This document shows positions 6,903 through 62,796 of a DNA stretch of 63,514 nt, in pieces. Both the position numbers and the translations under genes were made by a program. This DNA is from Candidatus Saccharibacteria bacterium GW2011_GWC2_48_9 (lineage in GTDB: Bacteria > Patescibacteriota > Saccharimonadia > Saccharimonadales > Saccharimonadaceae). The stretch is from NCBI GenBank assembly GCA_001003725.1, contig LCPR01000003.1, forward strand, positions 1 to 63,514, in the 5' to 3' direction. Below the pieces are notes generated by a model that was not told where the DNA came from, did not search any database, and saw only the letters and a program-made list of their open reading frames with translations. Position 1 is the stretch's first letter; every line of letters starts with the position of its first letter.

Positions 6903-6939
6903 GTAGCACGGTAGCATACGGCTGCATCTCGCTTTTGAT

Positions 6940-47137: not shown

Positions 47138-47488
47138 AGGCTTATTATCAAAGGTCTAAAGTTAAGCTGAACTACTTTACTTAGCCTACCAGCTCTGAGC
47201 TTGACTACCGTAAGCCAACCTTCTTTGCAAGCAATCTGGTTGTCATAGCCGAGTAAATAGTTTGATAGTAGAAATCAGTTTTTTGCCTTACAATATTTTT
47301 ATAGGTAGTTAAGCGAATATTATTATGTCATCAAAAAAGAAGTCTAGTTATCCTGGACTTCTTTTTAGATATAATTTTGGCTCCGCTTACAGGTCACGAA
47401 CTCTTTAATAAGGGTAGAACGCTACAAATCGGACACGGTGTGTATAGAATTGGATCGTACCAATAATGAGCCACGAGGAGGTGAAGTT
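47138..47488. other. Gene-poor stretch at the left border of the island
   Basis: About 350 bases without a supported gene. They hold the terminator-like hairpin at 47333-47366 and the leader of the zinc-ribbon gene, with the ribosome site GAGGTGAAG. The base composition turns more A/T-rich from here to about 51 kb, which may mark the left edge of inserted DNA. No tRNA or clear attachment repeat was found at this edge. Confidence 0.4.
47333..47366. terminator. Terminator-like hairpin at the island border
   Basis: AAAAAAGAAGTC and GACTTCTTTTT form a stem around an 11-base centre, with A and T runs on both sides. No gene ends closely on either strand. Confidence 0.7.
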
Positions 47489-47959
47489 ATGAGCGATAAT
47501 GAGCAGTTAAAGCGCGAATTTACGGATGACGAGCGCCGTAGGTTAGTTGATTACTTTAGCTTACTAACTGAGATAGATCAACGAGAAAAAGCACGCTTTG
47601 CCAAGCTTAAAGACTTCCCCAAAGGATTTGCTATGGACGGCGAAAGCCGCCAATGTGGGCTATGTTTCAAATCCGTATATGATACACCTGGCTTGTTCGA
47701 TAAATGGGGTTTTAAATGCTCAAATTGCCAAGATGCGGTCAATAAGCGAAAGATACCGGGGTCATTATGTGGAGATTATCGGCACGAAAGGTCTATACCC
47801 GACACGATTCTTGCCTCGAAGCTTAATGTAAGCGTACGAACAATTCGCAAGAAGATTAAGGATAGTGAGATTATTGGAAGAAGAATCCCTAATGGGCCTT
47901 ATATGATACTACTGAAGGACAATCCAGAATTAACTTTTAACCACGACATCGTTGTATAA
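47489..47959 (+). CDS. Zinc-ribbon/helix-turn-helix-like protein
   Basis: I start at the ATG at 47489, which has GAGGTGAAG directly upstream. The 156 residues have an acidic helix, then a four-cysteine site (QCGLCFKSVYD and FKCSNCQDAV) that would bind zinc, and a C-terminal part with an HTH-like segment (ILASKLNVSVRTIRKKIKDS) followed by a wing-like end. A DNA-binding regulator is the simplest reading. It is 10 bases upstream of the HNH-WYL gene, so the two form an operon. Confidence 0.7.
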   Translation: MSDNEQLKREFTDDERRRLVDYFSLLTEIDQREKARFAKLKDFPKGFAMDGESRQCGLCFKSVYDTPGLFDKWGFKCSNCQDAVNKRKIPGSLCGDYRHERSIPDTILASKLNVSVRTIRKKIKDSEIIGRRIPNGPYMILLKDNPELTFNHDIVV

Positions 47960-47969
47960 TTAGCACTAC

Positions 47970-48566
47970 ATGGAGTGGTTAGCGTTACTAATAGGTATTG
48001 GAATAATTTCCTCACTTTTTGACAAAAAGCCTATCGGTTCTTCGCAGTCCACAAAAGCTGTTTCACCGAAAAAGACAAACGAATGGGACGGCGAGATCCA
48101 AGGAAAAGGAATTGCCTCTGGAAGTGGTTGGGATCGAATCCGAAAAGCAGTGCTCGCTCGTGATAATTATACTTGTCGTTCATGCAGGAGAAAAGATAAC
48201 CTTACAGTTGATCATATTGTTCAGCTTTCTAAGGGCGGCACCAACAGCATGGAGAACCTGCAGACCCTTTGCAAATACTGTCACGAGAAAAAAGATAACC
48301 GAAAGATTTTTGATAAATCATTCAATCACGACAGCAACTACGGCTCGCAAACTACATCAAATCCGACAGTACAAGCTATAGAGCGTGCTATTCGTGGACA
48401 TACACGAATTAGAATAACTTACACTGACATAAATCAGAAAATTACATATAGAGAAATTACACCGTCTCACTTTACAAAAGAACATGGCATTGCATATTTA
48501 GTAGCCTTCTGTCATCTAAGAAATGAAAAAAGAACATTTAGACTTTCCAGAATTGTACTTAGGTAG
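47970..48566 (+). CDS. Membrane-anchored HNH endonuclease with a WYL-like C-terminal domain
   Basis: The 198 residues hold a short N-terminal membrane helix (WLALLIGIGIISSLFD), a linker, an HNH nuclease domain (VLARDNYTCRSCRRKDNLTV, then DHIVQLSKGG, and LQTLCKYCHEKK with the zinc and catalytic residues in place), and a C-terminal part (RITYTDINQKITYREITPSH, then YLVAFCHLRNEKRTFRLSRI) that fits a WYL domain. WYL domains bind nucleotides or nucleic acid and are common in defence systems. This combination is unusual. Convergent with the AAA_13 gene, 18 bases apart. Confidence 0.8.
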   Translation: MEWLALLIGIGIISSLFDKKPIGSSQSTKAVSPKKTNEWDGEIQGKGIASGSGWDRIRKAVLARDNYTCRSCRRKDNLTVDHIVQLSKGGTNSMENLQTLCKYCHEKKDNRKIFDKSFNHDSNYGSQTTSNPTVQAIERAIRGHTRIRITYTDINQKITYREITPSHFTKEHGIAYLVAFCHLRNEKRTFRLSRIVLR

Positions 48567-48584
48567 CTAACTTATCACACCCAC

Positions 48585-50750
48585 CTACTTCATACCCGAA
48601 TTAGAGCTGTACCAGTAACTATTGAAATGTTCCCTTGCGTTGTTATGCTCAAATAGACCGTAGAGGATAGTCTTTATCTCTTCTCTAGTTCTGCCGTTAA
48701 GATCCGCCTCCAAATCATCAATTGAATGCTGGTTCACATCGAACAGTTTCTTTGCGTTTGTGTTATTGCCGTAAAAAGAAACTTGATCCTTTTTTGTGAA
48801 GGTCATGTATGTCTCACATATCTTCCGGCAGCTACTTAACATTAGGTCTGGTTTGTTTTGCTCGTATAAAAATACGAGTTCCTTCCAAAGCATTTCGTAA
48901 CTAGTCTTAAAGTCATCGTTGCTACTCACTATTGGTTTAATAGTGGTGTATTTGCCGTTTGAATACAGATGGAAGGTTCCGTGTTTATTGTAAGAATTAT
49001 ATCTAGCACCTTTATTGTTGCGAACGTTAAGGTAGAAGTGAGTGTGGTGGGTCAGCAAGACAAACCATTGATTGGTCTGTTCTATGTTTTCGTAAAACTT
49101 CTGCACCTCTCCGATCATTAGATATTGCATCGTATCATCGTTACTTGTCATCGGATCGTCTAGAACGATGATTTTTGGCTTATTATCATTATCCGTGGAT
49201 TCAAGGTTCAGCATGAAATACAGAAAAGCTATGATATTCTTCTCGCCCCTACTGAGGTCAGTAATGGGACGTATTTTCCCATCATGACCCTCGATCTGGT
49301 ATTGGCCCTTCTGTCCCGCAAAACCGTCATCAACTAATTTCAGAGAGAATGATTCTACCCCCATACCTTTCAGTAGCTTACTTATACTGGTGGCTATCTT
49401 TTCTTCATCCTTAGTTTTAAGTATTAAGTCGGTTCGTATCCTAGTTTTTGTGTCCAATTCAGCCTTCTTGATGTCAAGATCAGCTTGAGCTTTATCGTTT
49501 AATGTGCGTAAATTTTCTAATTTCTTAGTTTCTTCTTCATAATTAAAGCCATTCAGCTGCTTCTTGATTTCATGATAGCGCAGTGCGTCTCTAGCTTCGT
49601 CCTGTTCAAACCTGAGATTCTTGGACAGTTCATTGTGCTCACTGATCAAACGGTCGGAATCCGTCTTTATGCCACTAAAGTTTTCCGGCAAATCTATGCA
49701 TAATGCAGGGGTTTTTGTGAATAATTCCTTGTTTTTCTCCTCTAACGCAGTCTTTAGGCTGTCAAGAAATTTTTTGTACTCCCCAATAGTCAGTTTTATT
49801 TTCGAATTTAGCGCATACACCTTATCAGCGTACTTACTGTAAAATGTATCTGTATCTAGCTCTTTTATATCATCTAATTCGGATATCACGTGTTCAATTT
49901 TAGTGATACCGCTCTTGATGCGGTCTTCTAGGCTCTTTACTTCGGTATTAAAGTAGTCGCCGAGAGCAGCCCATCGTTCTTCACTAATACTATTTCCGCA
50001 AAAAGCACAAATCTCCGTCGCTCTGTGCTTATGAATCCGCACCCCCTCTTTTGCAAAGTTCTGTTTAAGAGGATCGTCTTTTAGTTCCGGTATAGATTGG
50101 TGTGGTTTCACTCTTGAGTCGAGTACTTCATTTGTTGACTTTAAGTATGAGCCGAGATCAATAGCGGGAAATGTAATTCTACTTATATCAGCCTTTTTGT
50201 CGGAATTGATCGTATTCTTGTGTTTTCTGATATCATCAGCGGCAAGGAGGCTAGCTTTCGGTATCTCACCATTGAAGTCGCTCCTATTGTAGGTTGTTTT
50301 TGACACTGGTGGATTGTTTATGTTTTTTATGTGCTGGGCGGCACTAGCATGAAAGTTATTGATTTTTGTATTATGAGCGTCGAAGCTCTTTTTAGCTTTC
50401 GTAGTATTTGTAAATAAGTTCTCAAAGGCCTTATCTTCTGGTTGCTCCACCTGTTTTCTAATTTCAGATATATCCTCATTTATTTTATCTATATCTATTT
50501 GAATTTTTGCGTTTTCCACACCTAATGCTACTGCGTTCAATCTATTATTCTCGGCTACTCCGTCAAAATCCCTGAAAATACAAACATTGTAATTATCAGA
50601 AAATTGTTTAGCGATTTCGTCTGCGAGCGTACTCTTGCCTGTACCGTTTTTTCCAAATATAAAATTTACTTTCTTTGTCAACAAAAGCTCGCGGCTACCT
50701 GCTGAAAAACAATACGAGTTAGAGGATTGGTCTATCTTTATATCTGCCAT
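48585..50750 (-). CDS. RloC/PrrC-like AAA_13 ATPase, possible anticodon nuclease
   Basis: The 721 residues have an ABC/SMC-type ATPase split by a coiled-coil insertion. Walker A FGKNGTGKS is at 32-40, the signature LSRGEKNIIAFL is at about 498, and Walker B IIVLDDPMTSND at about 525. In the middle a CxxC (EICAFCGNSI, about 247) recalls the zinc hook of RloC. Near the end RKICE (about 639-643) and a His in VNQHSIDD (about 672) match in order and spacing the Arg-Glu-His triad of PrrC/RloC anticodon nucleases. Family knowledge: such proteins cut tRNA in response to phage or DNA damage. The tRNase role here is inferred. Confidence 0.75.
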   Translation of the reverse strand: MADIKIDQSSNSYCFSAGSRELLLTKKVNFIFGKNGTGKSTLADEIAKQFSDNYNVCIFRDFDGVAENNRLNAVALGVENAKIQIDIDKINEDISEIRKQVEQPEDKAFENLFTNTTKAKKSFDAHNTKINNFHASAAQHIKNINNPPVSKTTYNRSDFNGEIPKASLLAADDIRKHKNTINSDKKADISRITFPAIDLGSYLKSTNEVLDSRVKPHQSIPELKDDPLKQNFAKEGVRIHKHRATEICAFCGNSISEERWAALGDYFNTEVKSLEDRIKSGITKIEHVISELDDIKELDTDTFYSKYADKVYALNSKIKLTIGEYKKFLDSLKTALEEKNKELFTKTPALCIDLPENFSGIKTDSDRLISEHNELSKNLRFEQDEARDALRYHEIKKQLNGFNYEEETKKLENLRTLNDKAQADLDIKKAELDTKTRIRTDLILKTKDEEKIATSISKLLKGMGVESFSLKLVDDGFAGQKGQYQIEGHDGKIRPITDLSRGEKNIIAFLYFMLNLESTDNDNKPKIIVLDDPMTSNDDTMQYLMIGEVQKFYENIEQTNQWFVLLTHHTHFYLNVRNNKGARYNSYNKHGTFHLYSNGKYTTIKPIVSSNDDFKTSYEMLWKELVFLYEQNKPDLMLSSCRKICETYMTFTKKDQVSFYGNNTNAKKLFDVNQHSIDDLEADLNGRTREEIKTILYGLFEHNNAREHFNSYWYSSNSGMK

Positions 50751-50778
50751 GTGCTGCCTTAATTAAAATTAAATTTAA

Positions 50779-52146
50779 TCATTTTGTTTCTATCTTAATT
50801 TTAATTAACAGCTCCTGCCATATCCTCACCATCGCCCAGGTGTCCATTTTGCAATATTCAGTCAGGTCGGCAAGTATCTGATCCTTCTGGTCCGCTCGTG
50901 TTTCATCGAGCACCGCCTCCATCCAGAGCCGTTGAGCCGAGTTGCCGTCTTGAATGCCAAGGTCTTTGTAGCTTAGCTCAGGGCACACGACTGGCAACAC
51001 TTTTTTGATGCTTGCGCTTCCCTCGCAGCGCGGATCGTCATACCACTTTGTCTTAAATGGAATCATGAGGTCGACGACACGTTCGTTGATAGCCTTAATT
51101 TGCTTAGCATATTCCGGATACATCCGCCCTAGCTCCTCGTTGACCGATTTTTCGAAGCGCATATTCCAGGTAATAATTGAGCCGGAATCACCCATATCTT
51201 CTACTAGCTGCTTGGCTAAGTCTGGCGCTGGATTAGTATTTTCTCTGTGAAGATACTCTCTATGTTCTACTTCACCGCCAGGTTCACGGATGATATGCAG
51301 AGAATACTGAAACGGCACTTGCTGGTACGGTCGCTGTCCATCGAAGTACGGCACGAGGCCCTGCATTGTTTCGTAATCAAAGAAGTAGAGTGGATACTGT
51401 AGTTCGCCCAAAAAGCGTTCAATTTCTTGCTTGTTGATTTCGGCTCGAGTATCTGCTGGCCACACCATAGGCTCGGGCGGAAAGATATTTTCATAAACCT
51501 TCATCCATTCCGACCTAGAACCAAGCTTAGCCAGTTTCGGATTTGGATCGGGCATTTCTGCTTGCGCGGCGGCTTTCTTTGCCGCTTCCATGTATTCTGG
51601 CGTTTTCACGGCAATTTCATTCACCTCATCCGTCACATAAGCAAACATCGTAAGCTCTTTTGGATTAACGTCGCCCTCGCGAACATACTGATTATTTACA
51701 TGGATCACCGATACATTCCGAACAGTAAAGCCATTGCCCTCAAGTACTGTCTTCTGAAACGCAAGGTCATACAGATGATCCGACTTAACGCGTGTGCTGG
51801 ATTTAATTTCGTAGAGGTCGACTGTCTTACCCTCTACGACTGAAACTATGTCTGATATACAAGTAAATCCGTTCCATTCAAAACGAGGCTGGAATACAAC
51901 CTGAGCACCCGATTCAAGTGCTTGCTGGGTTCGTAGTGGTAGCGAGCGGTATTCATCGAAATCAGAGAAGCCGAGTGTCACGCCTTCTGGAAATAAAGAC
52001 TCAACATATGGTTCAAACGCATGTCCAGCGTCGAACATTGCTTGTGTTGCTGCGTCGACAGGTGGAAGTTTGCTCGGGTCATTCTTTTTCAGCCAAAGCC
52101 AGGCTGGCTGACGGAGAAAGAGCATGTAATCGGATTTAGAAATCAT
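50779..52146 (-). CDS. DUF2779 protein, PD-(D/E)XK plus RNase H-like exonuclease
   Basis: The 455-residue protein has an N-terminal Cas4-like nuclease part (DIVSVVEGKTVDLYEIKSST gives the D...ExK motif) and a C-terminal DUF2779 domain of the RNase H/DEDD type (YFFDYETMQ, ITWNMRFEKS, and CKMDTWAMVRIW as the final Asp site). Family members are linked to DNA or RNA processing and defence islands. It overlaps the upstream gene by 4 bases (ATGA) and leads into the AAA_13 gene 28 bases on, so the three are one transcript. Confidence 0.85.
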   Translation of the reverse strand: MISKSDYMLFLRQPAWLWLKKNDPSKLPPVDAATQAMFDAGHAFEPYVESLFPEGVTLGFSDFDEYRSLPLRTQQALESGAQVVFQPRFEWNGFTCISDIVSVVEGKTVDLYEIKSSTRVKSDHLYDLAFQKTVLEGNGFTVRNVSVIHVNNQYVREGDVNPKELTMFAYVTDEVNEIAVKTPEYMEAAKKAAAQAEMPDPNPKLAKLGSRSEWMKVYENIFPPEPMVWPADTRAEINKQEIERFLGELQYPLYFFDYETMQGLVPYFDGQRPYQQVPFQYSLHIIREPGGEVEHREYLHRENTNPAPDLAKQLVEDMGDSGSIITWNMRFEKSVNEELGRMYPEYAKQIKAINERVVDLMIPFKTKWYDDPRCEGSASIKKVLPVVCPELSYKDLGIQDGNSAQRLWMEAVLDETRADQKDQILADLTEYCKMDTWAMVRIWQELLIKIKIETK

Positions 52147-53147
52147 TTTGTTCTTTCCGCCTGATCGAGAAGTTTTACAAATAGAATTGCCTTACCAGCT
52201 TCCCAGTCCATCACTTTGGAGTATCTTCCGCTATGGTTTAGCGGGCTATTCATGCGGCAGCCTTCACACTCAATTTTTATTTTCTGCGGCTTCTCGGCTT
52301 GTATGAGTAGTAGCTGATCTTTTGACACCTCGTCCGGCTTTTGTATCGTCTGCCTGCACGACAATGGTATTACATATTTCAACCCGTCCATTTGCCAGAT
52401 ATTCCAACTGATTATCTCGGCGAAATGTTCTAGCTGCTCGTCGGTGAGGCTCTGTTTAGATTTTAGCTCTAGCTTATTGGAACAAAAGTCTTTATAGAAA
52501 TCGTCGATAGTCAGAAGTATATTCTCGCGCGCAATTAACAGGTTGTCGCCCTGCCATTCGTAGCCATAGGTGGCTTTGAGCGCCAGTTCGGCATATTTAA
52601 GCCACTCCTTCTTGCTACTCGCGAACTCACCTACTACTTGAAGTTTGCGGTCAAAGAACCCAACACGATTCTTTGGGGTGATAACAACACCCGTGTTGGC
52701 GGTAGGGTTGTAACGGCCAGCAATGAACGGCGCTTCACCACAAGTTATTTCGAGTCGACGTTCGGATATGTAATCTACCCAATTATCTTGGCCAACGGGC
52801 CAGTTTTTACTCGCCCAATCTATGGCCATGTTCATTTCTTTCACTACTTTGAGTGGCGTGAAGACTTCTGCCTTGTCTCTGGTGCGGTATTTTTGCTCTT
52901 CTTTGCTTTTAGCGGCACGTGGCTGGATAAGCTTGCCGTTGCCACCTGTAATTTGCTCACGTTTGATTTGCTTTTTGGGCGCATAATCTTTGCCGTATTT
53001 TTTGTAACTGTCTGTAGCCCAGATGATATTTCGTCGCGTAGTCCTGTCACCCAAAAGGATATCCAAAACACGCCCGCGATTGCGCAGGGTGTTTTCGCTG
53101 ATATCAATCTCGCTTCTCGGCCTCATCCTGCTCTCATTATACGTCAT
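52143..53147 (-). CDS. 'Restriction subunit M'-like protein
   Basis: The 334 residues contain the features of a phage/prophage family called 'restriction endonuclease subunit M': KAEVFTPLKVVKEMNMAIDW, RRLEITCGEAPFIAGRYNPT, VGFFDRKLQVVGEF, YGYEWQGDNLLIARENILLT and ISWNIWQMDGLKYVIP. An NPPY catalytic motif is missing, so methyltransferase activity is doubtful. A C-terminal CEGCRMN pair of cysteines could bind metal. It overlaps the DUF2779 gene by 4 bases. The plus-strand RNA gene lies just upstream. Confidence 0.8.
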   Translation of the reverse strand: MTYNESRMRPRSEIDISENTLRNRGRVLDILLGDRTTRRNIIWATDSYKKYGKDYAPKKQIKREQITGGNGKLIQPRAAKSKEEQKYRTRDKAEVFTPLKVVKEMNMAIDWASKNWPVGQDNWVDYISERRLEITCGEAPFIAGRYNPTANTGVVITPKNRVGFFDRKLQVVGEFASSKKEWLKYAELALKATYGYEWQGDNLLIARENILLTIDDFYKDFCSNKLELKSKQSLTDEQLEHFAEIISWNIWQMDGLKYVIPLSCRQTIQKPDEVSKDQLLLIQAEKPQKIKIECEGCRMNSPLNHSGRYSKVMDWEAGKAILFVKLLDQAERTK

Positions 53148-53173
53148 CTACCTCTTTAAAACTTCTGCATATA

Positions 53174-53202
53174 TTGACAATCGGGGAGATTTTTGCTAAG
53201 AT
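53174..53202 (+). promoter_or_regulatory. Sigma-70 promoter for a small RNA
   Basis: TTGACA (53174-53179) and TAAGAT (53197-53202) are exactly 17 bases apart, with a perfect -35 and a 5/6 match at -10. It points away from the gene at 53147 and towards the terminator at 53257. Confidence 0.7.
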
Positions 53203-53208
53203 TCAGAT

Positions 53209-53283
53209 ATCCAATGGTTGATTTTCTCAAACCGTCGGGGAATTACATCCAAGAGCAGCCCTCCTAACCGAGGGCTGTTTTTA
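53209..53283 (+). ncRNA. Candidate small RNA of about 75 nt
   Basis: A consensus promoter at 53174-53202 and a strong rho-independent terminator at 53257-53283, both on the plus strand, delimit a transcript of about 75 bases between two minus-strand genes. No sensible small reading frame is within it. The terminator's T run exists only for this direction. The RNA would end just before the NYN gene's 3' end and does not overlap it. Family unknown. It may regulate the island genes or be a guide-like or antisense RNA. Confidence 0.55.
53257..53283 (+). terminator. Terminator of the candidate small RNA
   Basis: CAGCCCTC and GAGGGCTG form an 8-bp stem with a 6-base loop followed by TTTTT on the plus strand. 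The minus strand lacks a T run, so it works in the plus direction only. Confidence 0.8.
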
Positions 53284-53294
53284 TGTAGTAAAAA

Positions 53295-53846
53295 CTATCG
53301 TTCACGTCGCCTCAGGTCGCCACGCCATATGTCTGCTTGGATCTTCAAAATGTCAGTATAGCCGTCACCACCAGTGCGCAGCTCTGTGGATATATTATTT
53401 CGAGAAGAGTATACGTATACTTTTTTGTCGCGACTATGGATAAATCGAATCAATGCAAGAAAGTCTGAATCACCCGAGAACAAAACTGCCTCGTGGTACT
53501 TCTTTGCTTGATTGACAACATCTATCGCCAGCTCGACGTCCATGTTTCCTTTTTCTTCGACAACAGTTCCGCGTTCAGTTTCGACTCTAATTTGCTTTAA
53601 CGGCTTCTTGCGTACGACAAACTTCAGCGCCTTCTCTAAATAGACGTAAAACCTATGCTTATTGCCGACGTCATGATCCCGTGTGCCAGGCTTGGGGTAG
53701 GCATCGTAGTAGTACACCTTCATCTTGCTGGCTTCATGGGTAGATTTCAGATAATTCTTTAGCTTTTCGAGATCTAATATCTTAGCCTTTGCTTTTTGCA
53801 CCTCCCACAAGTTTGCAGCATCGATAAATACAAATACGGTTTTCAT
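53295..53846 (-). CDS. NYN-domain (PIN-like) RNase, LabA/DUF88 type
   Basis: The 183 residues are one NYN domain: TVFVFIDAANLWEVQK at the start with the first acidic residue, MKVYYYDAYPKPGTRD, then GNMDVELAIDVVNQA and AVLFSGDSDFLALIRFIHSR with the remaining acidic residues of the PIN-like site. These proteins are predicted metal-dependent ribonucleases. It overlaps the LexA-like regulator gene by 4 bases (ATGA), so it is translated together with its presumed repressor. Confidence 0.9.
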   Translation of the reverse strand: MKTVFVFIDAANLWEVQKAKAKILDLEKLKNYLKSTHEASKMKVYYYDAYPKPGTRDHDVGNKHRFYVYLEKALKFVVRKKPLKQIRVETERGTVVEEKGNMDVELAIDVVNQAKKYHEAVLFSGDSDFLALIRFIHSRDKKVYVYSSRNNISTELRTGGDGYTDILKIQADIWRGDLRRRER

Positions 53847-54463
53847 AGCGGTTTTTTAATAACCCCCACTACACGACCCTCGACAGCAAAGTCATCGCTT
53901 GCATCGATAAATATCGGGAAATAATCGTCACGCATAGAATCGGGCTTTAGGACGATGCGATCACTCTCTCGTTGAAATCGCTTTATATTTGCCAGCCCGC
54001 CAATTATAGAAACGATAATTTCGTTTGGCTTTGGCTCATATGATTCAGTCTTCTCCACCAACACGAAGTCGCCATTCTCAATCGTAGAGCCGTCTATATC
54101 TGCCTTGTTCATAGAATCACCCCTAGCTATAAGAGCATATACTTTACTGATATCTTTATTCTTTACGATCGATGGAGATACGATGATATTATCTACCACG
54201 CGACCATCGGCAAATTTCGTAGCTTCGCCGCAGTCGGCTTCGCCCATCACGGGGACGGTATAAAAGCCAGCTTTCGTTCGCAGCGATGGCACGTAGCGTC
54301 CCTCTTTGCTAACTAAATCACCGCGCTTCAATAGTTGATTCAGGTGATGAGTGATCTGAGATGGATACTCGCAGCCAACCAGCTCTTTTAGATCTACCCT
54401 CCTCATACCCCTGATGTCATGTACCTTTGCCAGGTCCATCAACCTCTGTTGTATCTCGTTCAT
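53843..54463 (-). CDS. LexA/S24-family self-cleaving repressor
   Basis: The 206 residues have a helix-turn-helix-like N-terminus (about 5-60, with RRVDLKELVGCEYPSQITHH) and a peptidase S24 domain. Cleavage would fall at Cys78-Gly79 in GEADCGEATK (as Cys-Gly in UmuD), the catalytic Ser is Ser117 in ARGDSMNKAD and the Lys is Lys161 in GLANIKRF. Such repressors release their genes after DNA damage through RecA-ssDNA. A perfect inverted repeat lies just upstream of its start, so it should repress itself and the genes behind it. Confidence 0.9.
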   Translation of the reverse strand: MNEIQQRLMDLAKVHDIRGMRRVDLKELVGCEYPSQITHHLNQLLKRGDLVSKEGRYVPSLRTKAGFYTVPVMGEADCGEATKFADGRVVDNIIVSPSIVKNKDISKVYALIARGDSMNKADIDGSTIENGDFVLVEKTESYEPKPNEIIVSIIGGLANIKRFQRESDRIVLKPDSMRDDYFPIFIDASDDFAVEGRVVGVIKKPL

Positions 54464-54470
54464 AGTATAA

Positions 54471-54491
54471 TTGTATCATAGGATGATACAA
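54471..54491. promoter_or_regulatory. Operator of the S24 repressor
   Basis: The 9-base arms TTGTATCAT and ATGATACAA are exact reverse complements, separated by AGG, and centred about 18 bases upstream of the repressor ATG where they overlap the -10/-35 area. No other full copy was found in the window, so the regulon is probably local. Confidence 0.75.
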
Positions 54492-54554: not shown

Positions 54555-54661
54555 AGCGCGATTCCCCGAGGTGGGATCGGAGGTCTCGAGCATCTCTTTT
54601 CGTGGCTAAGTTTCCGCGTTGCGACTGGAGGGTAGAATGCGGGACAGGAAGGCAAGATGCT
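54555..54661 (+). promoter_or_regulatory. G/C-rich structured 5' leader of the Cys-rich gene
   Basis: Roughly 107 bases lie between the predicted start and the ATG. They are more G/C-rich than the flanks and contain pairing segments (GGGG and CCCC around TAGCGCGATT; TCGAG near CGGAGGTC). No known riboswitch class is recognised; it may be a leader that controls translation. Confidence 0.35.
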
Positions 54662-54901
54662 ATGCAAAAACAAACGTACTACATGAATAAGAATATGCAG
54701 GAAAAAAGCGGTGACTACGAGGTTCATACTAACAATTGTGCACATGGTGCTCATGAGGATAACAAGTTATATCTCGGCGACTATTATAGTTGCGGTCCAG
54801 CTGTTCAAGAAGCAATTCGTCTGTATTCCGACCAGGTTACAAAACTTGGTGGTAAAATAAACGGCTGCTACTGGTGTTGTAATCCTTGCCATACAGGATA
54901 A
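54662..54901 (+). CDS. Cys-rich small protein, 79 aa
   Basis: From the ATG at 54662 (AGGAAGG about 9 bases upstream) the product starts MQKQTYYMNKNMQEKSGDYE and has HTNNCAHGAHEDNKLYLGDY, YSCGPAVQEAIRLY and a closing GCYWCCNPCHTG. From memory, short proteins ending INGCYYCC..CHT are common, unstudied mobile-island genes. The 6 Cys and several His could bind zinc or iron-sulfur. It is divergent from the S24 repressor, with the operator between. Confidence 0.75.
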   Translation: MQKQTYYMNKNMQEKSGDYEVHTNNCAHGAHEDNKLYLGDYYSCGPAVQEAIRLYSDQVTKLGGKINGCYWCCNPCHTG

Positions 54902-54919: not shown

Positions 54920-54955
54920 TATAGACCAGCCTGAGACAGGTTGGTCTATTTCTTA
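54920..54955. terminator. Bidirectional terminator
   Basis: ATAGACCAGCCTG and CAGGTTGGTCTAT form a 13-bp stem (one G-T pair) with a 3-base loop between the convergent Cys-rich gene and the large restriction protein gene. T-rich flank on the plus side. Confidence 0.8.
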
Positions 54956-57900
54956 TTCCATGGCCTTGACGCGGGTTTCGATGAAGTCGATTTCTTCGGG
55001 CGAGAGGTTGTATTTGCGGTAGAGTTGTTGGTCGATTTCGGGGATTGATTTTGACCAGTTAATGTCGGAATTTGGAGTAAAGTCTTGAAGTGGAACGCAC
55101 TTCCATTTAGGTGCCGGATTGTCTTGAGTGATTTTAAGAATTCCAAGCATGGCGCGTGTGAATTTTGATTTTATATACTTCATACAGGCGTCCGCCTCGT
55201 CTCTCGAATCAAACTTACCGATAGATACATACGTTTGGGTATGTCCAACTAGAGGCTCAGCGATTAGAGGAGTGCTCAAGACTTCACCGAGCCTTCCTGA
55301 GCCATTTGCTTTAGGTATAAAAACTTTCCATTTATTGAGATTTTCATGCGCTTTGATATAGCTAGATTTTATAAACTTATTCTTGCGCACGTTATTCAAA
55401 CGGCCGGCAATCTGAATATATGACTCATCGTCATTAGGCTTCTGGTCGTAAAAGACATATGAGAGTGTTTCAAATGCATTAGTAATAACGTCCCGCTCAT
55501 GCCCTTTGCTCATATTGCTTTTGGCTGTAGGATTTTCGTCATGTAGAGTTTTTGTAAACTGATAAGCATTTTGTCCGTATATAATCTCACTGAGCGAGCG
55601 CTCGCTTACAGATTCCACCTTCTTCAATATAGAATTTAGTTCGGGAAAACTAGTATAGACTCCAATTGAACCAAAGTCACTATTTGCATCACGGAAGGTA
55701 ACCACTACTCCTCCCTTAATATCCGTGGAAGGGAAAACCTTGGAGCTGTCCTGCTCGAAAGATAAGACCTTCAAGTGATTATCATTAAGCATCTTTTTAT
55801 TCCAGGCAGAAGGCGTCGCCCCTGCATTGAACAAAAACCGAGCAGGACTAATCAAGCATGCACTATAAGCAAGCTGATAGGCGGAGTCTAGAAATAAATG
55901 ATATATAGGAGGTGCTTGTGTACTATCTCCCGTGGCCACATCCTGATACGGCGGATTACCCACCACAGCGTCAAATTTCATCATACTTCCTCCATTTCCA
56001 AATAATTGTGCGAGTTTTGTTGTTGCGGTTCCATCTTTTGCCTGTGGTAATAAGTCATGCTGGATAAAATTATTGCTACTTATAGTATGTTCCGTATCAA
56101 ACCCAAATATATAACTCGTCGTGATTCCGTGCAGTACACTGGTTGGCGCTAAGCCATACACCTGATTTTCGAGTATGTGTTTCAGACATTCGGCATCACT
56201 ACTGTAATTATGGCGCGTATTTGTGAAAAGTTTCTTAACTATTTCAGTAATATACATGCCAGACTTCATATACAGGTCGATGAACGTACTGTCTGTGCGG
56301 CGGAATAGTTCTGGCTGTTCTTTTTCTAGCCCATCGACCATCATCTTAACGACTTTTCGGGGGGTGAAGATCTGGTTGTTTTTTTGGTTCGGTATCAACT
56401 CAAAAATATCTTCATCGGTTTCAAAATAGTTGGCACGCTTTTGCTTTTCTGCCACAAACTCTGCAATGGACGCATTGAACTTGTACTTATGGAACACACC
56501 CTCGAAGCGCTGGCGCTCGCCATTGTCGTCAGTGTATTCAAAACCATCTCGGAGTTTATGGAACTCCTCCTTAGTTATGTTCGTTAGGTCGATGAAATCT
56601 TCATCACTGATCTGATCGTCAAAATTATCGATAGTAATAACTTCGCGTGATGAATTGGCCATGACAAACATAGGAATCGTGCGCGTAAAGGCGCGAAGGT
56701 GCTCACGAACCTCCTCCTCCTTGGACTTTTGAACAGTTTCAACGACTTTAGTTTCTTGCTGTTCAACTTTCGCTTGCACTAGATCCTGTTCGATGACGGA
56801 GGCAAGACTTTGCTTCAGAGCTTCTGGGTCTTTATCTTCACTGTTTTCAAACTCGGCAACGACGAGCTTAATTTTCTCAGTCGCCTCTTTGCGTGCTTCA
56901 TCCGCTTCGGCAGCGGTCCACTTATACTGCTCTTTTAGCTTGGCTATCGGCGCCTCTACGAGTGCTTCTACCTTCGCGGGCAGCATATCAATCGTCTCTT
57001 CTGGAGTGGCTTGGTCGAGTACATTATCTACCACGCGGTCAATATTGGCTCGGTATATCTTTTCGCCCAATATGACACCGGTATTTTCATTGATCTTGGT
57101 TTGCTTTTCCTGCTCTAGCTTGCGGGCATCATCAAGGTCGAGCGTCTGCTTGGTCGATTCGGCTCGTTTATTCTTTTCAACAGGCATTTTATCGAGTATT
57201 TCTTCGACTTCTTTCGGAAAGTGGAACACGCCCTTAATATTGTCGTTAAATAACAGGTTGGTCATGAATCGTGCCTGGACGATTTCGGTAGCCGCCAGAG
57301 CGTTCGGGAATGTTAATACCTTTTCAGCGTCGAGCTCAACCATCTTGCCATCAACGTCTTCAGAGATGACCGGGAAGTAGTTAAGGAGTTCTTTGATGTT
57401 GTCTTTGCGCTCCGCCTCAGTAATTTCGCCGTTTGCCGCACTAGGATTAAGTGCGTTCGCGAAGGTATCGTAAATTTCGAGTACACGCGTAGGTGCGAAA
57501 TCGAACAGGTATGCTGACTTTTTTGCCTTAACCTCACCGTCTTCAGTGAATCTGTACGGGTTTTGGGCACGAAAAGCCGCCTGCATGTACTGCGATGGAG
57601 TCTTGATGTCGGTTAACATCAAAACAGCACTCCATTCCTTGATAGTTACGCCAGTAGTGAGCTGGCCGCAAGAAAGTGTAATAGTGCGTGAATTTTCAGC
57701 AATAGCTTTTTTGACCTTATCGAACGACCTCTCATTTCCTTTGAAGTCGGCCTCTTCTTCGTCGAATGACCGGCCGTCACCAGCCGCTACAACGACTTTG
57801 TAGTCTTTGAATACTTCGTCTTGTTTTAATAGCTGCTCGAGAGCTTTGACTGACTCGACTCGGTTGCCGACATACCAAAACGTATGACGAAGTTGGTCTC

Positions 57901-59185
57901 TAAGCTCCGGTGTAGAAAACGGATACTTTTCATTTGTTGAAAGGTTACGGAGAAACTCACGTACATCGTCTTCATGAACGAATTTTTGGTTTTTTGTAGC
58001 AAAAAACTCGTTAAGGTCGAAGGCGTAGTCACGAGTTTCATCATCAATATCAATACCCTCGTTCACCTCGTCAGCTATCATCTGTGAGATGCGGTAGGTG
58101 TAAAGTCGTAGGTCTGGCAGGTCTGTGTGAGGACCACTTTCACCTTCAGCTAGTTCTTTCTGTTTTTCTTTTTGTTCGTCAAGGTAGGTCCAGTTATATA
58201 TCGCATCACGAGGGAACTTTTGGTTTGCGATAGCCTTGAATGGTGTTCCGGATAAGTGTAGCGTGTGGCTTCGCTTAACAATAGTAAAGGCATCGTCAGT
58301 ACGACCCGTATCTACACCCTCGTGAGCCTCATCGATCACCAGTAAATCCCATTCAAGGTCGGCAACCCAGCGAAGCTTATCATGGCTGCCGCCGAAATAT
58401 TTCGAACCCTTAAGATCCTGTAGTGACAAGAAGGTGATCATTGGCTTGTCGCTACCTTCGATCACATTGAACTGTTCTCGCGTTAGTGATTTACGATCGG
58501 CAAGAGACGCTGTATCAGAGATAAAGTAATAGCCATCGATAAACGTGTCGAAATCGTCGAACCATGAATTCGCGATTGCTGGGCGGTTAGTAACAATTAG
58601 GACCTTTTTAGCATCAAGTCGCTTAGCAAGGTCATAGCTTGCAAGTGTCTTACCAAAACGAGGCTTGGCATTCCAGAGAAACTCGCCGTTTTCGTGAGCC
58701 TGAAAATACTCAATGGCTTTTTCAACTGCCTCTTGCTGTTCACTGCGGAGTTCATAAGGAATCTTCTTACCGCCATCTTGAAGGGCTGCAAAACCGTGCT
58801 GACGGAATGTGTCGAACAGCTGTTTGGATTTTTCAGGTGTACCATTGAAATAGAACCACTCTTTGCCTAGGTCGGGACGGTGCCGAACATCACTCTTGAC
58901 TAGGAATTTGTGAAAATCTGTGTCTTTGAAGTCATTTTGCTGATCAGCGTAAAATGCCGGTGCACTCCATTGCTTTTCGAACCTTAATCGTTTCGCGGCA
59001 GTGTGAGTTTGTTCATAAATTCGCTTATCAACATCCTTACGCTCGGTGTAGCCAATCTTCTGAGAGCCCTCATTATCTGCTTCGTCAGGAAGAATGTATG
59101 AATAAATCTGCGGATAAACAACTTTCGTGGTTTTTATTTTTGGTATACCAGTTAGCTGTGAGTTATCCGTAGTATTATCATGCAT
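54953..59185 (-). CDS. Single-chain restriction-modification protein: GIY-YIG-like, helicase, methyltransferase
   Basis: About 1410 residues. I prefer the ATG at 59185, because the one at 59197 lies inside the TATAAT (59196-59201) of the likely promoter. The N-terminal part (about 25-115, QIYSYILPDEADNEGSQKIG) looks like a GIY-YIG (T5orf172) nuclease. A SF2 helicase follows with KPRFGKT at about 164-170 and VIDEAH at about 283-288. After a long helical linker comes an Eco57I-like methyltransferase (QIFTPRKVVKMM, FIDLYMKSGMYITEI and VGNPPYQD at about 1080) and a C-terminal target-recognition-like part. Such all-in-one proteins cut foreign DNA that lacks their mark. Motif I is odd (YMKSG instead of CGSG). 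Confidence 0.85.
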   Translation of the reverse strand: MHDNTTDNSQLTGIPKIKTTKVVYPQIYSYILPDEADNEGSQKIGYTERKDVDKRIYEQTHTAAKRLRFEKQWSAPAFYADQQNDFKDTDFHKFLVKSDVRHRPDLGKEWFYFNGTPEKSKQLFDTFRQHGFAALQDGGKKIPYELRSEQQEAVEKAIEYFQAHENGEFLWNAKPRFGKTLASYDLAKRLDAKKVLIVTNRPAIANSWFDDFDTFIDGYYFISDTASLADRKSLTREQFNVIEGSDKPMITFLSLQDLKGSKYFGGSHDKLRWVADLEWDLLVIDEAHEGVDTGRTDDAFTIVKRSHTLHLSGTPFKAIANQKFPRDAIYNWTYLDEQKEKQKELAEGESGPHTDLPDLRLYTYRISQMIADEVNEGIDIDDETRDYAFDLNEFFATKNQKFVHEDDVREFLRNLSTNEKYPFSTPELRDQLRHTFWYVGNRVESVKALEQLLKQDEVFKDYKVVVAAGDGRSFDEEEADFKGNERSFDKVKKAIAENSRTITLSCGQLTTGVTIKEWSAVLMLTDIKTPSQYMQAAFRAQNPYRFTEDGEVKAKKSAYLFDFAPTRVLEIYDTFANALNPSAANGEITEAERKDNIKELLNYFPVISEDVDGKMVELDAEKVLTFPNALAATEIVQARFMTNLLFNDNIKGVFHFPKEVEEILDKMPVEKNKRAESTKQTLDLDDARKLEQEKQTKINENTGVILGEKIYRANIDRVVDNVLDQATPEETIDMLPAKVEALVEAPIAKLKEQYKWTAAEADEARKEATEKIKLVVAEFENSEDKDPEALKQSLASVIEQDLVQAKVEQQETKVVETVQKSKEEEVREHLRAFTRTIPMFVMANSSREVITIDNFDDQISDEDFIDLTNITKEEFHKLRDGFEYTDDNGERQRFEGVFHKYKFNASIAEFVAEKQKRANYFETDEDIFELIPNQKNNQIFTPRKVVKMMVDGLEKEQPELFRRTDSTFIDLYMKSGMYITEIVKKLFTNTRHNYSSDAECLKHILENQVYGLAPTSVLHGITTSYIFGFDTEHTISSNNFIQHDLLPQAKDGTATTKLAQLFGNGGSMMKFDAVVGNPPYQDVATGDSTQAPPIYHLFLDSAYQLAYSACLISPARFLFNAGATPSAWNKKMLNDNHLKVLSFEQDSSKVFPSTDIKGGVVVTFRDANSDFGSIGVYTSFPELNSILKKVESVSERSLSEIIYGQNAYQFTKTLHDENPTAKSNMSKGHERDVITNAFETLSYVFYDQKPNDDESYIQIAGRLNNVRKNKFIKSSYIKAHENLNKWKVFIPKANGSGRLGEVLSTPLIAEPLVGHTQTYVSIGKFDSRDEADACMKYIKSKFTRAMLGILKITQDNPAPKWKCVPLQDFTPNSDINWSKSIPEIDQQLYRKYNLSPEEIDFIETRVKAME

Positions 59186-59211
59186 ATTACACAACATTAT
59201 ACTCTATTTAC

Positions 59212-59512: not shown

Positions 59513-60883
59513 ATGACCTCCCCAACCGCACAGCTGCAAGTGCAGCACATCAATATCAACGAACTGAAAGCGAGCGAGTTCAACCCGCGGACATGGTCGG
59601 ATCACCAGCTCGAGAAGCTGCGTGAAAGTATTGAAAAGTTCGGCGTCGTAGACCCGCTCATCATCAACACCCACCCATCACGCAAGAATATCGTGATCGG
59701 TGGCAATATGCGGCTCCAGGTGCTTCAGGAAATGAAATACACTGATGTGCCCGTGGTCGAGCTTCACCTCACCGAGCGCAAAGAGCGCGAGCTCAACCTA
59801 CGGCTTAATAAAACTGGAGGCGACTGGGATTACGCTCTACTAAAAGAGTTCGATGAAGACCTGCTGGCAGACGTCGGCTTCGAATCCGAAGAGCTCGATG
59901 ACGTATTCGCTATCGAGGATACCGAAGAGAAGAATTCGTTTGATCTCAAGAAGGAGCTGAAGAAGCTCGATATCAAGAAAATTACCGTCCAAAAGGGTGA
60001 TATTTACCAGCTCGGCGAGTCGCGTCTAATGTGCGGCGACTCTACCATCGAAGCTGACTTCGACAAACTCATGAACGGCGAAAAAGCCGATATGTGTATG
60101 ACCGACGAACCATATATCCTCGACTACTTGCACGCCAAGCGGGGCGGTAAGCCAGTTAAAGGCTTCGGTGCCAAGCGCGACCGCATCTACCTGGAGACAG
60201 AAAGCCTGCCCGATAACTTTATCGAGCTCTGGATGGCAAATGTCGCCAAACATGCCAAGCCAGACTTCAGCATCATCTCGTACGAAAACTGGAAGAACCT
60301 GCGCGAAATGTGGAATGCCATGGAAAAGTATTGGAAGGTCAAGAATATGATCGTCTGGCATCTACCGAACCGGCACCAGGGCTTCTCATCGAAGTACAAG
60401 TTTTTCTCTAAGCACGACATCGCAATCGTTGGTGGCTCAGGTGATGTGCCATACAATACCGACGAAGAAGAGGGTCCGCTACAGGAAATGTACGAAACTG
60501 CCCTGTTCGCTACCTCCGGCAAACCGCAATGGGAAGGCTACGAAAAAGGCAAGAAATATATGCCAACCGACTTCATCGAGTTTAATGCCGATGACCTCAA
60601 AGGCTCCGGCCAGGGCGTTGTGTTCGGCACGAAGCCACTAGACATCCTTATTCCCTACATCAAGGTGCTGACGCGGCGTGGTGACCTCTTAGTGGAACCC
60701 TTTGGTGGGTCGGGGAGCACACTGATTGCCTCCGTCAAGCTGAACCGGCGCTGTTACATTATGGAAAAAGTACCGACCTACGCCGAAGTGATTATGCGGC
60801 GCTGGGAAAATGAGACTGGCCTTAAACGCCAGTTGATCGTACGAGGTAACGATGACGAAGTTCAGCCGAGCGAACAGGAATAA
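59513..60883 (+). CDS. ParB-like/DNA methyltransferase fusion
   Basis: The 456 residues start with a ParB/Spo0J-like domain (about 8-95, ELKASEFNPRTWSDHQLEKL, FGVVDPLIIN, IVIGGNMRLQVLQEM) and continue with a beta-class DNA methyltransferase: motif IV MCMTDEPYILDYL, and motif I VEPFGGSGSTLIASVKL near the end. Motif IV is DEPY rather than DPPY, a change at a catalytic position. Such ParB-methyltransferases are typical of phages and mobile elements. It has AAAGGAAG before the start. Overlaps the small-terminase-like gene by 32 bases. Confidence 0.88.
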   Translation: MTSPTAQLQVQHININELKASEFNPRTWSDHQLEKLRESIEKFGVVDPLIINTHPSRKNIVIGGNMRLQVLQEMKYTDVPVVELHLTERKERELNLRLNKTGGDWDYALLKEFDEDLLADVGFESEELDDVFAIEDTEEKNSFDLKKELKKLDIKKITVQKGDIYQLGESRLMCGDSTIEADFDKLMNGEKADMCMTDEPYILDYLHAKRGGKPVKGFGAKRDRIYLETESLPDNFIELWMANVAKHAKPDFSIISYENWKNLREMWNAMEKYWKVKNMIVWHLPNRHQGFSSKYKFFSKHDIAIVGGSGDVPYNTDEEEGPLQEMYETALFATSGKPQWEGYEKGKKYMPTDFIEFNADDLKGSGQGVVFGTKPLDILIPYIKVLTRRGDLLVEPFGGSGSTLIASVKLNRRCYIMEKVPTYAEVIMRRWENETGLKRQLIVRGNDDEVQPSEQE

Positions 60884-61463
60884 AGTCCTCGGGCTCCTTC
60901 GCGAGAACCCAAACCTTCAGCGTGCCTGCAAAAAAGCAGGCATCGCTCGGAGTACGCTTTACCGATGGATGGAGGATGACACCAGTTTTCGTGATGACGT
61001 GCGTGATGCCCAGGAAATCGGCCAAGACACCATGAACGACTACGTTGAAGCCAAGCTAATGGAAAATATCCAGAATAACATGCAGAAATCGATCGAGTTT
61101 TATCTCCGACACAACAACCCTAAATATGCTTCTACGCGTGTCGAGACGGAGTACTTCGACAAGCGTGGTGCTGGGCGAATCAATCACCTACCTATTGGCA
61201 TTGACCCAATGTACTATAGCGGCGAAATCGATATGCTCGACAAGCTAGCCGAAAGAGTTGAGCTGCGTAGACAGATGCATGAAGCGAAAATGGAGACTGG
61301 CGATTACGACCCTCATCGGCCCATTCGCCCAGAGCAGCTTGGTGCCATGTTTGCTGAAGAGTTTTACAAGGCGTTTCCAAACGCCAAAGATATAATCGAT
61401 GACCAAATGTACGAATATGATAAGAAAAAGCGACAAGAAAACCCCGATCCGGATGATTACTAG
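60852..61463 (+). CDS. Small-terminase-like DNA-binding protein
   Basis: The 203 residues begin with a helix-turn-helix (NRNKVLGLLRENPNLQRACK, AGIARSTLYRWME) followed by a helical part (DVRDAQEIGQDTMNDYVEAK, SIEFYLRHNNPKYA), an arrangement seen in phage terminase small subunits of the phBC6A51 type. No large terminase or structural phage gene is in view. The C-terminal end is acidic. It overlaps the methyltransferase gene, so the two are translationally coupled. Confidence 0.75.
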   Translation: MTKFSRANRNKVLGLLRENPNLQRACKKAGIARSTLYRWMEDDTSFRDDVRDAQEIGQDTMNDYVEAKLMENIQNNMQKSIEFYLRHNNPKYASTRVETEYFDKRGAGRINHLPIGIDPMYYSGEIDMLDKLAERVELRRQMHEAKMETGDYDPHRPIRPEQLGAMFAEEFYKAFPNAKDIIDDQMYEYDKKKRQENPDPDDY

Positions 61464-61477
61464 ACTTAATCTCCGTC

Positions 61478-61491
61478 TGGCGGTATGTTGT
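61478..61491. repeat. 14-bp direct repeat, left copy
   Basis: TGGCGGTATGTTGT occurs here and again at 62775-62788, just upstream of the serine recombinase. The repeats flank a segment of about 1.28 kb that holds the phage-type small gene and the nuclease gene. Confidence 0.55.
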
Positions 61492-61514
61492 GTTGCTGAA
61501 GAAAGGAACTACTT

Positions 61515-61820
61515 ATGAAAATGACTCATGGTGCGATGAAGATGCGAAATGGCACCAGCTTCCAGGGCTACGTCAAAGCCCAATACGATCATCTTGTCAG
61601 GATATTTGGCGAGCCGTACACTAATTCAGACAATCATAAAACGGACGTTGAGTGGATCGTCTCGACTCCCTATGGACCAGCCACTATTTATAACTATAAA
61701 AATGGCTATTCGTATTTAGGACTAAGCGGGCTCAAGCTCGATGAGATGGATGAGTGGCACGTCGGTGGCAAAAACGCGAAAAGCTACGAGTGGATCATAC
61801 AGCACGTAACTACTGGTTGA
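61515..61820 (+). CDS. Phage-type hypothetical protein, 101 aa
   Basis: The protein (GTSFQGYVKAQYDHLVRIFG, then DVEWIVSTPYGPATIYNYKN, DEWHVGGKNAKSYEWI) matches, from memory, a family of small phage or plasmid proteins with the FGEP and WHIGG motifs and unknown role. AAAGGAA precedes the start. Its end overlaps the 3' end of the convergent nuclease gene by 11 bases. Confidence 0.7.
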   Translation: MKMTHGAMKMRNGTSFQGYVKAQYDHLVRIFGEPYTNSDNHKTDVEWIVSTPYGPATIYNYKNGYSYLGLSGLKLDEMDEWHVGGKNAKSYEWIIQHVTTG

Positions 61821-62730
61821 TGTCGTAACTCTGCTGGATGAGATCCATCACATACTCTAAGTCGGTACCAGATGTAACTTCAACTTCGTAGTCACCATTC
61901 CCCCAGTGGCCAATATGCACAGGCGACTCGACATCACGAGCAAGTCCCCGCGGGTCGTCTAGTGTGCCCGTCTTCATGTTGATATAAAGTTTTAACTTAG
62001 ACTTCTTGAAGACGACATCGACGAAGTTGCGTGTCGTTTTGTAGGCAACATACATCTTCTTTGGATCCTCAATAATTTCCGTATCAATAGCCAAGATCCG
62101 CTCTTTAAGCGATTCGAATAGTGCCTTGATATCATCATTCGCCATCGCTAAGTGGTACTCAAGTGTGAACGTTTCCTGCAACTTTTCAGCCTTGCCAGAA
62201 TCCACAGTGAACTTCGGTGCATCTTGTAATTTCACCTTCTGATAGTTTTCAGTATCTAGTGTTAGCAAACCATCCTCATATAGCTTGTATCGATATAGCT
62301 CGATGTTAATTGGCAATAAGTCGGCCGTATCTGTGTCGAACTTATTATAACTCTCGGCAACACAAATCACTCGCGGCGCCGCCCACTGAATCGCAATCGT
62401 AATTTTCTTTTCATTGCAAAGCTTCTCAAAACTATCTTTATGGTCAAGGAGCCAGCGAAGATACGACAAGCCTTGGTTGATTACGTTCTCGTTATGTCCC
62501 TTTTTGTACTCGATAATGCACGGATTACCTTCATCATCGATGCCAAGCGTATCCATACGCCCACCAAAGCTGGTAGAGTATTCGCTTGCGAGAAAGTGGA
62601 CACCAAGCAGTTCGTGAAGGCTCGCTTCAAAAATTCGCTGCACGTCACGCTCGAGAATCTTCTTACCATTTAGGTTTGTGATTGGTTTTAGTCGAGAGGC
62701 GTTACTGCCAGATACTTTGAATAAACTCAT
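61810..62730 (-). CDS. DUF5655 nuclease, PD-(D/E)XK (NucS/DUF91-like)
   Basis: The 306 residues have an N-terminal nuclease domain (RDVQRIFEASLHELLGVHFL, then GGRMDTLGIDDEGNPCIIEY-KKG, giving D...ExK) and a C-terminal DUF5655 domain (EDPKKMYVAYKTTRNFVDVV, LKLYINMKTGTLDDPRGLAR, GHWGNGDYEVEV). The family is common in prokaryotes as a lone gene, often in islands, and is a probable DNase. Convergent with the phage-type small gene. Confidence 0.88.
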   Translation of the reverse strand: MSLFKVSGSNASRLKPITNLNGKKILERDVQRIFEASLHELLGVHFLASEYSTSFGGRMDTLGIDDEGNPCIIEYKKGHNENVINQGLSYLRWLLDHKDSFEKLCNEKKITIAIQWAAPRVICVAESYNKFDTDTADLLPINIELYRYKLYEDGLLTLDTENYQKVKLQDAPKFTVDSGKAEKLQETFTLEYHLAMANDDIKALFESLKERILAIDTEIIEDPKKMYVAYKTTRNFVDVVFKKSKLKLYINMKTGTLDDPRGLARDVESPVHIGHWGNGDYEVEVTSGTDLEYVMDLIQQSYDINQ

Positions 62731-62767
62731 GATTTCGTATATTATCTCACTTTTCGCTAGACTTTAC

Positions 62768-62782
62768 TACCGCATGGCGGTA
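62768..62782. promoter_or_regulatory. Perfect 6-bp inverted repeat upstream of the recombinase
   Basis: TACCGC and GCGGTA flank ATG. It overlaps the right copy of the 14-bp direct repeat and adjoins the recombinase start, where serine integrases often have their attachment site. Operator or att site. Confidence 0.4.
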
Positions 62783-62788
62783 TGTTGT
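62775..62788. repeat. 14-bp direct repeat, right copy
   Basis: Second copy of TGGCGGTATGTTGT, overlapping an inverted repeat and the possible first ATG of the recombinase. Confidence 0.55.
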
Positions 62789-62796
62789 TGCTTGCA

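What the first reader, a model, noticed from the sequence alone, without database searches (positions are those of the whole stretch)
48585..54491. SOS-type repressor heading a nuclease/ATPase series: candidate defence system
A self-cleaving LexA/S24 repressor with its own palindromic operator is followed, on one strand and with 4-base overlaps at two joints, by an NYN ribonuclease, a 'subunit M'-like protein without NPPY, a DUF2779 protein (Cas4-like plus RNase H-like) and a RloC/PrrC-like ATPase. The parts suggest a unit held silent and released on DNA damage or phage attack, with several RNA- and DNA-cutting proteins. I know the separate families but not this combination. A break of about 147 bases (53148-53294), holding a plus-strand RNA, divides the series in two.
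Basis: partly seen in the sequence, partly recalled or inferred. Interest (0 to 1): 0.78.

Follow-up and report, generated by a model that had tools for sequence, protein, structure and literature searches.

The report
RNase paired with dedicated small RNA
Inside a patchwork of anti-virus genes in a tiny Saccharibacteria-type bacterium, an RNA-cutting enzyme gene sits head-on to a small structured RNA gene that accompanies nearly every close copy of that enzyme across the Candidate Phyla Radiation, which points to an undescribed RNase-plus-RNA partnership, possibly a toxin and its RNA restraint.

Summary
The 'subunit M' protein belongs with the unmentioned helicase-methyltransferase gene next door (54953-59197): the two lie together in all 10 relatives examined. 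The AAA_13 gene is a stand-alone RloC/PrrC-like candidate (PADLOC PDC-S06). In the closest relative the NYN and DUF2779 genes both lie in a type I restriction operon. The locus is a mosaic defence island.

The real find is the plus-strand RNA in the 'break'. It is a roughly 75-nt, two-hairpin RNA with its own promoter, convergent to NYN and absent from Rfam. It follows NYN in 80/80 loci found by NYN alone, and in 11/11 genomes of a separate sample. Its stems covary (189 double changes against 54±6 shuffled). Found by RNA alone, 15/22 loci have NYN and 3 keep NYN remnants. More distant NYN subfamilies carry a different convergent RNA gene (promoter in 13/17 against 9% of controls); common NYNs do not (2/24).

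I think the RNA restrains NYN, as in a toxin-antitoxin pair often parked in restriction operons; here a self-cleaving S24 repressor probably controls NYN. The pairing is well shown; the mechanism is inferred.

The parts
53174..53202 (+). promoter of the small RNA, TTGACA-17-TAAGAT
   Evidence: conserved position in the related loci
53203..53288 (+). small RNA: hairpin 1, conserved linker GGGGAAUUACAUCCAAG, terminator hairpin (RNA 5' end probably near 53209)
53295..53846 (-). NYN ribonuclease, convergent with the RNA; conserved D9, N12, D103, D126, D128
53843..54463 (-). S24/LexA-like self-cleaving repressor, overlaps NYN by 4 bases
54471..54491 (.). palindromic operator TTGTATCAT-AGG-ATGATACAA, overlapping the -10-like box of the S24 gene
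52143..53147 (-). MTase_II-like 'subunit M' protein, partner of the RM gene 54953-59197
50779..52146 (-). DUF2779 protein, accessory gene in R-M/BREX loci of relatives
48585..50750 (-). AAA_13 ATPase (PDC-S06), RloC/PrrC-like
54602..54901 (+). small Cys-rich ORF divergent from S24; a relative lies beside S24 in L112

Best explanation
The core is a two-gene unit: an NYN ribonuclease and a dedicated two-hairpin small RNA transcribed head-on to it from its own promoter. Most likely the RNA binds the NYN protein and holds it inactive (RNA antitoxin), and NYN cuts cellular or phage RNA when that hold is lost, for example when phage infection upsets the cell's RNA pool. Shown: the RNA gene, its strand, its structure, its near-obligate pairing with this NYN family, its co-divergence with NYN, and frequent placement behind R-M methyltransferase genes. 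Inferred: binding, inhibition, toxicity and trigger. In this window the unit lies behind an S24 repressor, so NYN transcription should be released by DNA damage (RecA-type self-cleavage), and it sits in a mosaic island between the two genes of an R-M pair and beside DUF2779 and a RloC/PrrC-like nuclease.
For: RNA convergent to NYN in 80/80 NYN-selected loci. In a separate class sample all 11 genomes with close-family NYN are RNA-positive. RNA-selected: 15/22 loci with NYN, 3 with NYN remnants, 4 without, i.e. the RNA outlasts the nuclease. Covariation 189 against 54±6 cells, 97.6% paired, slid controls at most 61%. Strand: 249 G-U against 4 A-C cells; promoter in 68/77 against 7% of shuffles. 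NYN and RNA distances correlate, rho 0.63, permutation p 2e-4. More distant NYN subfamilies: convergent promoter of at least 10/12 in 13/17 against 9% of control genes (p 6.6e-10), followed by other hairpin-plus-terminator RNAs such as L288 and L290; common NYNs 2/24. Gene just upstream of NYN is a DNA methyltransferase in about 10-11/66 against 2/80 control genes. Sporadic: close-family NYN in 11/276 class and 3/287 phylum genomes.
Against: No toxicity, binding or expression data. The anatomy is not that of type III toxin-antitoxin systems: single copy rather than tandem repeats, convergent rather than upstream and co-transcribed. One intact NYN at 49% identity (G019, L101) has no detectable RNA nearby or elsewhere in its genome; in G046 a weak RNA lies on the other side of a frameshifted NYN. 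RNA surviving next to NYN remnants could reflect recent loss rather than an antitoxin. None found in viral contigs or phages. Most NYN copies are not in R-M operons.
Confidence: 0.45

Rival explanations
1. The RNA is a cofactor or guide: NYN and the RNA form a ribonucleoprotein in which the RNA gives specificity or activates cleavage, as a defence effector.
For: Invariant unpaired linker ACAUC..AG and near-invariant inner stem CUCC/GGAG; co-divergence; R-M neighbourhoods.
Against: No variable guide-like stretch in 77 RNAs; the RNA survives where NYN is only a remnant, which a pure cofactor would not explain well.
Confidence: 0.2
2. The RNA is a substrate or an antisense regulator: NYN matures or degrades the small RNA, or the RNA pairs with the 3' end of the NYN mRNA, so that the pair is a feedback loop rather than a toxin and antitoxin.
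For: Convergent, abutting 3' ends; CRISPR-associated NYN trims small RNAs (PMC11346440); convergent antisense control is known in type I toxin-antitoxin pairs (from memory).
Against: Compensatory changes and an invariant linker are not needed for simple antisense.
Confidence: 0.2
3. One reading: one SOS-controlled defence unit of S24, NYN, subM, DUF2779 and AAA_13.
For: Same strand, 4-base overlaps, perfect operator; S24-led defence genes elsewhere.
Against: No co-occurrence of the set; each part has a different regular partner; divergent RNA promoter in the break.
Confidence: 0.08
4. Chance: a common Patescibacterial small RNA or terminator happens to lie next to NYN.
For: 4/22 RNA copies have no NYN trace.
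Against: 80/80 and 11/11 pairing, remnants of NYN, separate RNA type in other NYN subfamilies, background rates in controls and in common NYNs.
Confidence: 0.02

Closest known systems
Type III toxin-antitoxin systems (ToxIN and kin)
   Same: An RNase paired with a structured small RNA; abortive-infection role for ToxIN (PMC5772629)
   Different: The RNA here is single copy, has its own promoter and is convergent; the nuclease is NYN/PIN-like, not the ToxN fold
PrrC guarding a type I R-M system
   Same: RNase gene lodged in an hsd operon; PrrC is silenced by the R-M protein and turned on by a phage anti-restriction peptide (PMC3874168)
   Different: NYN instead of a PrrC-type ATPase/nuclease; an RNA partner; only a minority of NYN copies sit in R-M operons
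Type I toxin-antitoxin pairs with convergent antisense RNA (e.g. TxpA/RatA, BsrG/SR4; from memory)
   Same: Convergent small RNA at the 3' end of the toxin gene
   Different: The toxin there is a small hydrophobic peptide, not an enzyme; here the RNA has conserved internal structure
CRISPR-associated NYN ribonuclease (B. fragilis Cmr, PMC11346440)
   Same: NYN RNase in a defence locus; Mn2+-dependent ssRNA cleavage
   Different: Proposed role there is crRNA trimming; no dedicated convergent RNA mentioned in the abstract
REase_MTase_IIG plus MTase_II pairs of Firmicutes plasmids
   Same: The window's 54953-59197 and 52143-53147 are this pair
   Different: In the window the two genes are separated by S24, NYN and the RNA
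RloC / PADLOC PDC-S06 (AAA_13)
   Same: 48585-50750 matches PDC-S06 at 8e-234 and has a zinc-hook-like CxxC
   Different: No membership in a joint cassette found

Membership tests
Type III toxin-antitoxin | RNA antitoxin made of tandem repeats | tested here: not met
   one copy per locus in 77 aligned sequences
Type III toxin-antitoxin | RNA encoded upstream of and co-transcribed with the toxin | tested here: not met
   convergent with its own promoter
Type III toxin-antitoxin | toxin of the ToxN/AbiQ fold | tested here: not met
   Pfam NYN; fold matches 2qip and the MARF1 NYN domain
Type III toxin-antitoxin | RNA binds and neutralises the toxin protein | not testable with these tools
   needs a bench assay
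NYN-domain ribonucleases | NYN fold with conserved acidic residues | tested here: met
LexA/S24 self-cleaving repressors | scissile Ala/Cys-Gly pair and Ser-Lys dyad | tested here: met
LexA/S24 self-cleaving repressors | palindromic operator at its own promoter | tested here: met
   clear palindromes are not seen in most relatives
PrrC-like guard of type I R-M | invariable linkage to an hsd locus (PMC3874168) | tested here: not met
   R-M methyltransferase directly upstream in only about 10-11/66
IIG-type R-M with MTase_II partner | neighbouring partner genes | tested here: met
   the window order is interrupted by S24, NYN and the RNA
RloC | ABC ATPase with zinc hook and C-terminal anticodon nuclease triad | tested here: inconclusive
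   GKS38, CAFC248, R642xxxE646 and later His residues present; exact triad and activity not tested
Known RNA families (Rfam 15) | match above gathering score | tested here: not met
   best sub-threshold match E 0.007 to BTnc231, far below its cut-off

The most novel reading that the evidence does not exclude
A Patescibacteria/CPR-wide superfamily of RNase-RNA units: several NYN subfamilies, each with its own convergent small RNA gene of the hairpin-plus-terminator kind, forming a new class of RNA-controlled nuclease used as a toxin-antitoxin or as a second-line guard of restriction systems, sometimes under SOS-type control.
Probability: 0.45. Interest if true: 0.88.

Novelty: categorically new. 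Interest (0 to 1): 0.8.

Why it matters
CPR/Patescibacteria hold a large share of bacterial diversity, yet few of their non-coding RNAs have been described. A conserved structured RNA tied to one RNase family across many candidate phyla, absent from Rfam, gives a compact two-gene system that can be tested in E. coli. If the RNA restrains the nuclease, this is a new architecture of RNA antitoxin and would explain why such units lodge in R-M operons. The S24-led version links RNA cleavage to DNA damage. The rating 'categorically new' refers to the anatomy of the NYN-RNA pair, which fails the membership tests of the known kinds; the surrounding island is ordinary.

Tried and rejected
One five-gene cassette: rejected after co-occurrence searches. 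S24 as a simple prophage repressor: some relatives neighbour ParB-methylase, TerS-like and resolvase genes (G072, G067), as in the window, but others head CBASS or lie before HsdR; left open. S24 palindromes as a general feature: weak in most relatives. Genome-wide regulon of the operator: 9 places at up to 3 mismatches against 4 for the reversed control, nothing else at 0-1. RNA in viral contigs and NYN in phages: none. Alphaproteobacterial NYN homologues (30%): no RNA-model match. PDB relatives of AAA_13 by sequence: none. Literature searches found no description of the pair.

Full report
What is there. The window is a whole 63.5-kb contig of a ~1.07-Mb genome whose closest relatives by sequence are Candidatus Saccharibacteria. 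All five genes, both 4-base overlaps, the operator and the 147-base break exist as described. One neighbour was left out: 54953-59197, on the same strand, a 1414-aa protein with a ResIII helicase, an Eco57I methyltransferase with NPPY and a weak T5orf172 (GIY-YIG-like) stretch.

The cassette is a mosaic. In all 10 relatives examined that carry the whole subM region (four genomes of the order; Enterococcus, Lactiplantibacillus, Pediococcus and Bifidobacterium plasmids; two phages) a relative of all or part of the helicase-methyltransferase lies beside it or within a few kilobases; one contig-edge fragment (L012) is uninformative. So subM is the partner of 54953-59197, and S24, NYN and the RNA sit between the two. 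NYN, S24, DUF2779 and AAA_13 relatives in 149 genomes of the order do not share neighbourhoods as a set. In the closest relative of NYN (L134, 78%) the order reads HsdM-NYN-(RNA)-...-HsdS-HsdR-a small gene-DUF2779, with DUF2779 94.6% identical to the window's over the 112 residues available (HsdM by Pfam, the other Hsd names there by sequence reading and length). In G136 NYN overlaps hsdM by 4 bases. Close DUF2779 relatives sit beside type III R-M and PglZ/BrxL genes. The AAA_13 protein is PADLOC's PDC-S06 with zinc-hook-like CAFC and R-x3-E motifs.

The RNA. The break holds a plus-strand promoter (TTGACA-17-TAAGAT) and an RNA that folds with z = -4.66. Reading the DNA 3' of NYN in G136 and G069 showed the same element. 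One scan of 84,980 species genomes with a four-sequence NYN alignment returned 80 loci, nearly all labelled CPR/Patescibacteria or unclassified (a few labelled Niastella, Flavobacteriaceae, Sulfurimonas or Acidobacteria; two of these are identical to a CPR contig around the gene, so probably contamination). Every one has the element convergent to NYN (78 distinct sequences). The alignment of 77 gives hairpin 1, a linker with invariant ACNUC..AG, and a terminator hairpin. 12 of 22 pairs show double compensatory changes, with 189 such cells against 54±6 in shuffles and 97.6% of cells paired against at most 61% for slid structures. G-U cells outnumber A-C cells 249 to 4, and 68/77 have a promoter of at least 9/12 whose -10 box ends 8 nt before the hairpin in 69/77; both say that the strand convergent to NYN is transcribed. 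No Rfam family matches.

Pairing tested both ways. RNA-first: in 287 phylum and 381 class genomes there are 22 distinct strong matches; 15 have NYN (one cut by a contig edge), 3 have NYN remnants (L256, L216 and, by eye, L215), 4 have none. NYN-first: in 276 class genomes 11 have the close NYN family (clear score gap, at least 150 bits against at most 105) and all 11 are RNA-positive. Exceptions: G019 (49% NYN, no RNA) and G046 (frameshifted NYN, weak RNA upstream on the same strand). NYN and RNA distances correlate (Mantel rho 0.63, p 2e-4, n = 41), as expected for a linked pair.

Wider than one RNA family. NYNs of the next score tier have a convergent promoter of at least 10/12 in 13/17 cases against 9.4% of 329 control genes with a downstream gap of at least 120 nt (Fisher p 6.6e-10; at least 11/12: 65% against 1.8%, p 8e-13). 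The predicted transcripts read as hairpin(s) plus terminator but differ in sequence; two (L288, L290) share hairpin-GGAACCAAA-terminator. The common NYN group of the order shows background (2/24). The scan rule was chosen after seeing the close family, but the second tier and both control sets are separate data.

Context and control. The gene just upstream of NYN is a DNA methyltransferase in about 10-11/66 same-strand cases against 2/80 genes about 6.5 kb away; ResIII genes follow in 6/71 (this set also contains a few upstream genes of the other strand). S24 domains occur immediately upstream twice: a LexA-like protein 5 bp away (L169) and a helicase-S24 fusion 18 bp away (L158) (the GIY-YIG label of its N-terminus is from reading the sequence). 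Relatives of the window's S24 lead a cyclase plus 2TM effector (CBASS, G067) or directly precede HsdR (G115). In 12 relatives the scissile Gly, the Ser and the Lys are invariant. So S24 proteins recur as likely switches of defence genes in these bacteria, and S24-NYN is a recurrent though minor arrangement.

Mechanism. Shown: a dedicated RNA gene, a NYN fold with intact conserved acidic residues, near-obligate pairing, and more RNA-without-NYN than NYN-without-RNA. Inferred: the RNA restrains NYN, NYN is harmful when released, and placement in R-M operons makes it a guard as PrrC is for type I R-M (PMC3874168). Cofactor or guide, and substrate or antisense, readings remain open. The unit fails three defining features of type III toxin-antitoxin systems, so I do not file it there, although it may work like one.

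Limits. No expression or biochemical data; many relatives are metagenome assemblies; host names of whole-genome handles are hidden; the literature search covers open-licence papers only.

Noticed in passing
window 59513-63273: ParB-methylase, Sf6-like small terminase and resolvase genes next to the island; their relatives flank S24 genes in G072 and G067, hinting that S24 came with a phage-like or integrative element. The contig ends there.
   Followed up: partly
L110 (G067) 5942-9847: S24 gene directly heading a CBASS operon: CD-NTase with AGS_C sensor, 2TM effector and a 390-aa protein of unknown family shared with G072, G013 and G051.
   Followed up: partly
L158:3525-5543: Fusion of a GIY-YIG-like N-terminus, a Schlafen-group-3-type helicase and a C-terminal S24 domain, 18 bp upstream of NYN.
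   Followed up: no
L288 and L290, 3' of NYN: A second small RNA family (hairpin-GGAACCAAA-terminator) convergent to a more distant NYN subfamily.
   Followed up: partly
RNA alignment A2 columns 64-67 and 74-77 (window about 53264-53276): Inner terminator stem is nearly invariant CUCC/GGAG, the anti-Shine-Dalgarno/Shine-Dalgarno core, while the outer stem covaries freely; a terminator alone would not need this.
   Followed up: no
window 47438-48566: Plus-strand HNH-WYL protein (IscB-like HNH) and a small HTH protein convergent to the AAA_13 gene.
   Followed up: no
L218 / L245 (G259): Copy of the RNA beside a gene that reads as DUF3800 in a type I R-M locus, with no NYN; possibly a different partner.
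   Followed up: partly
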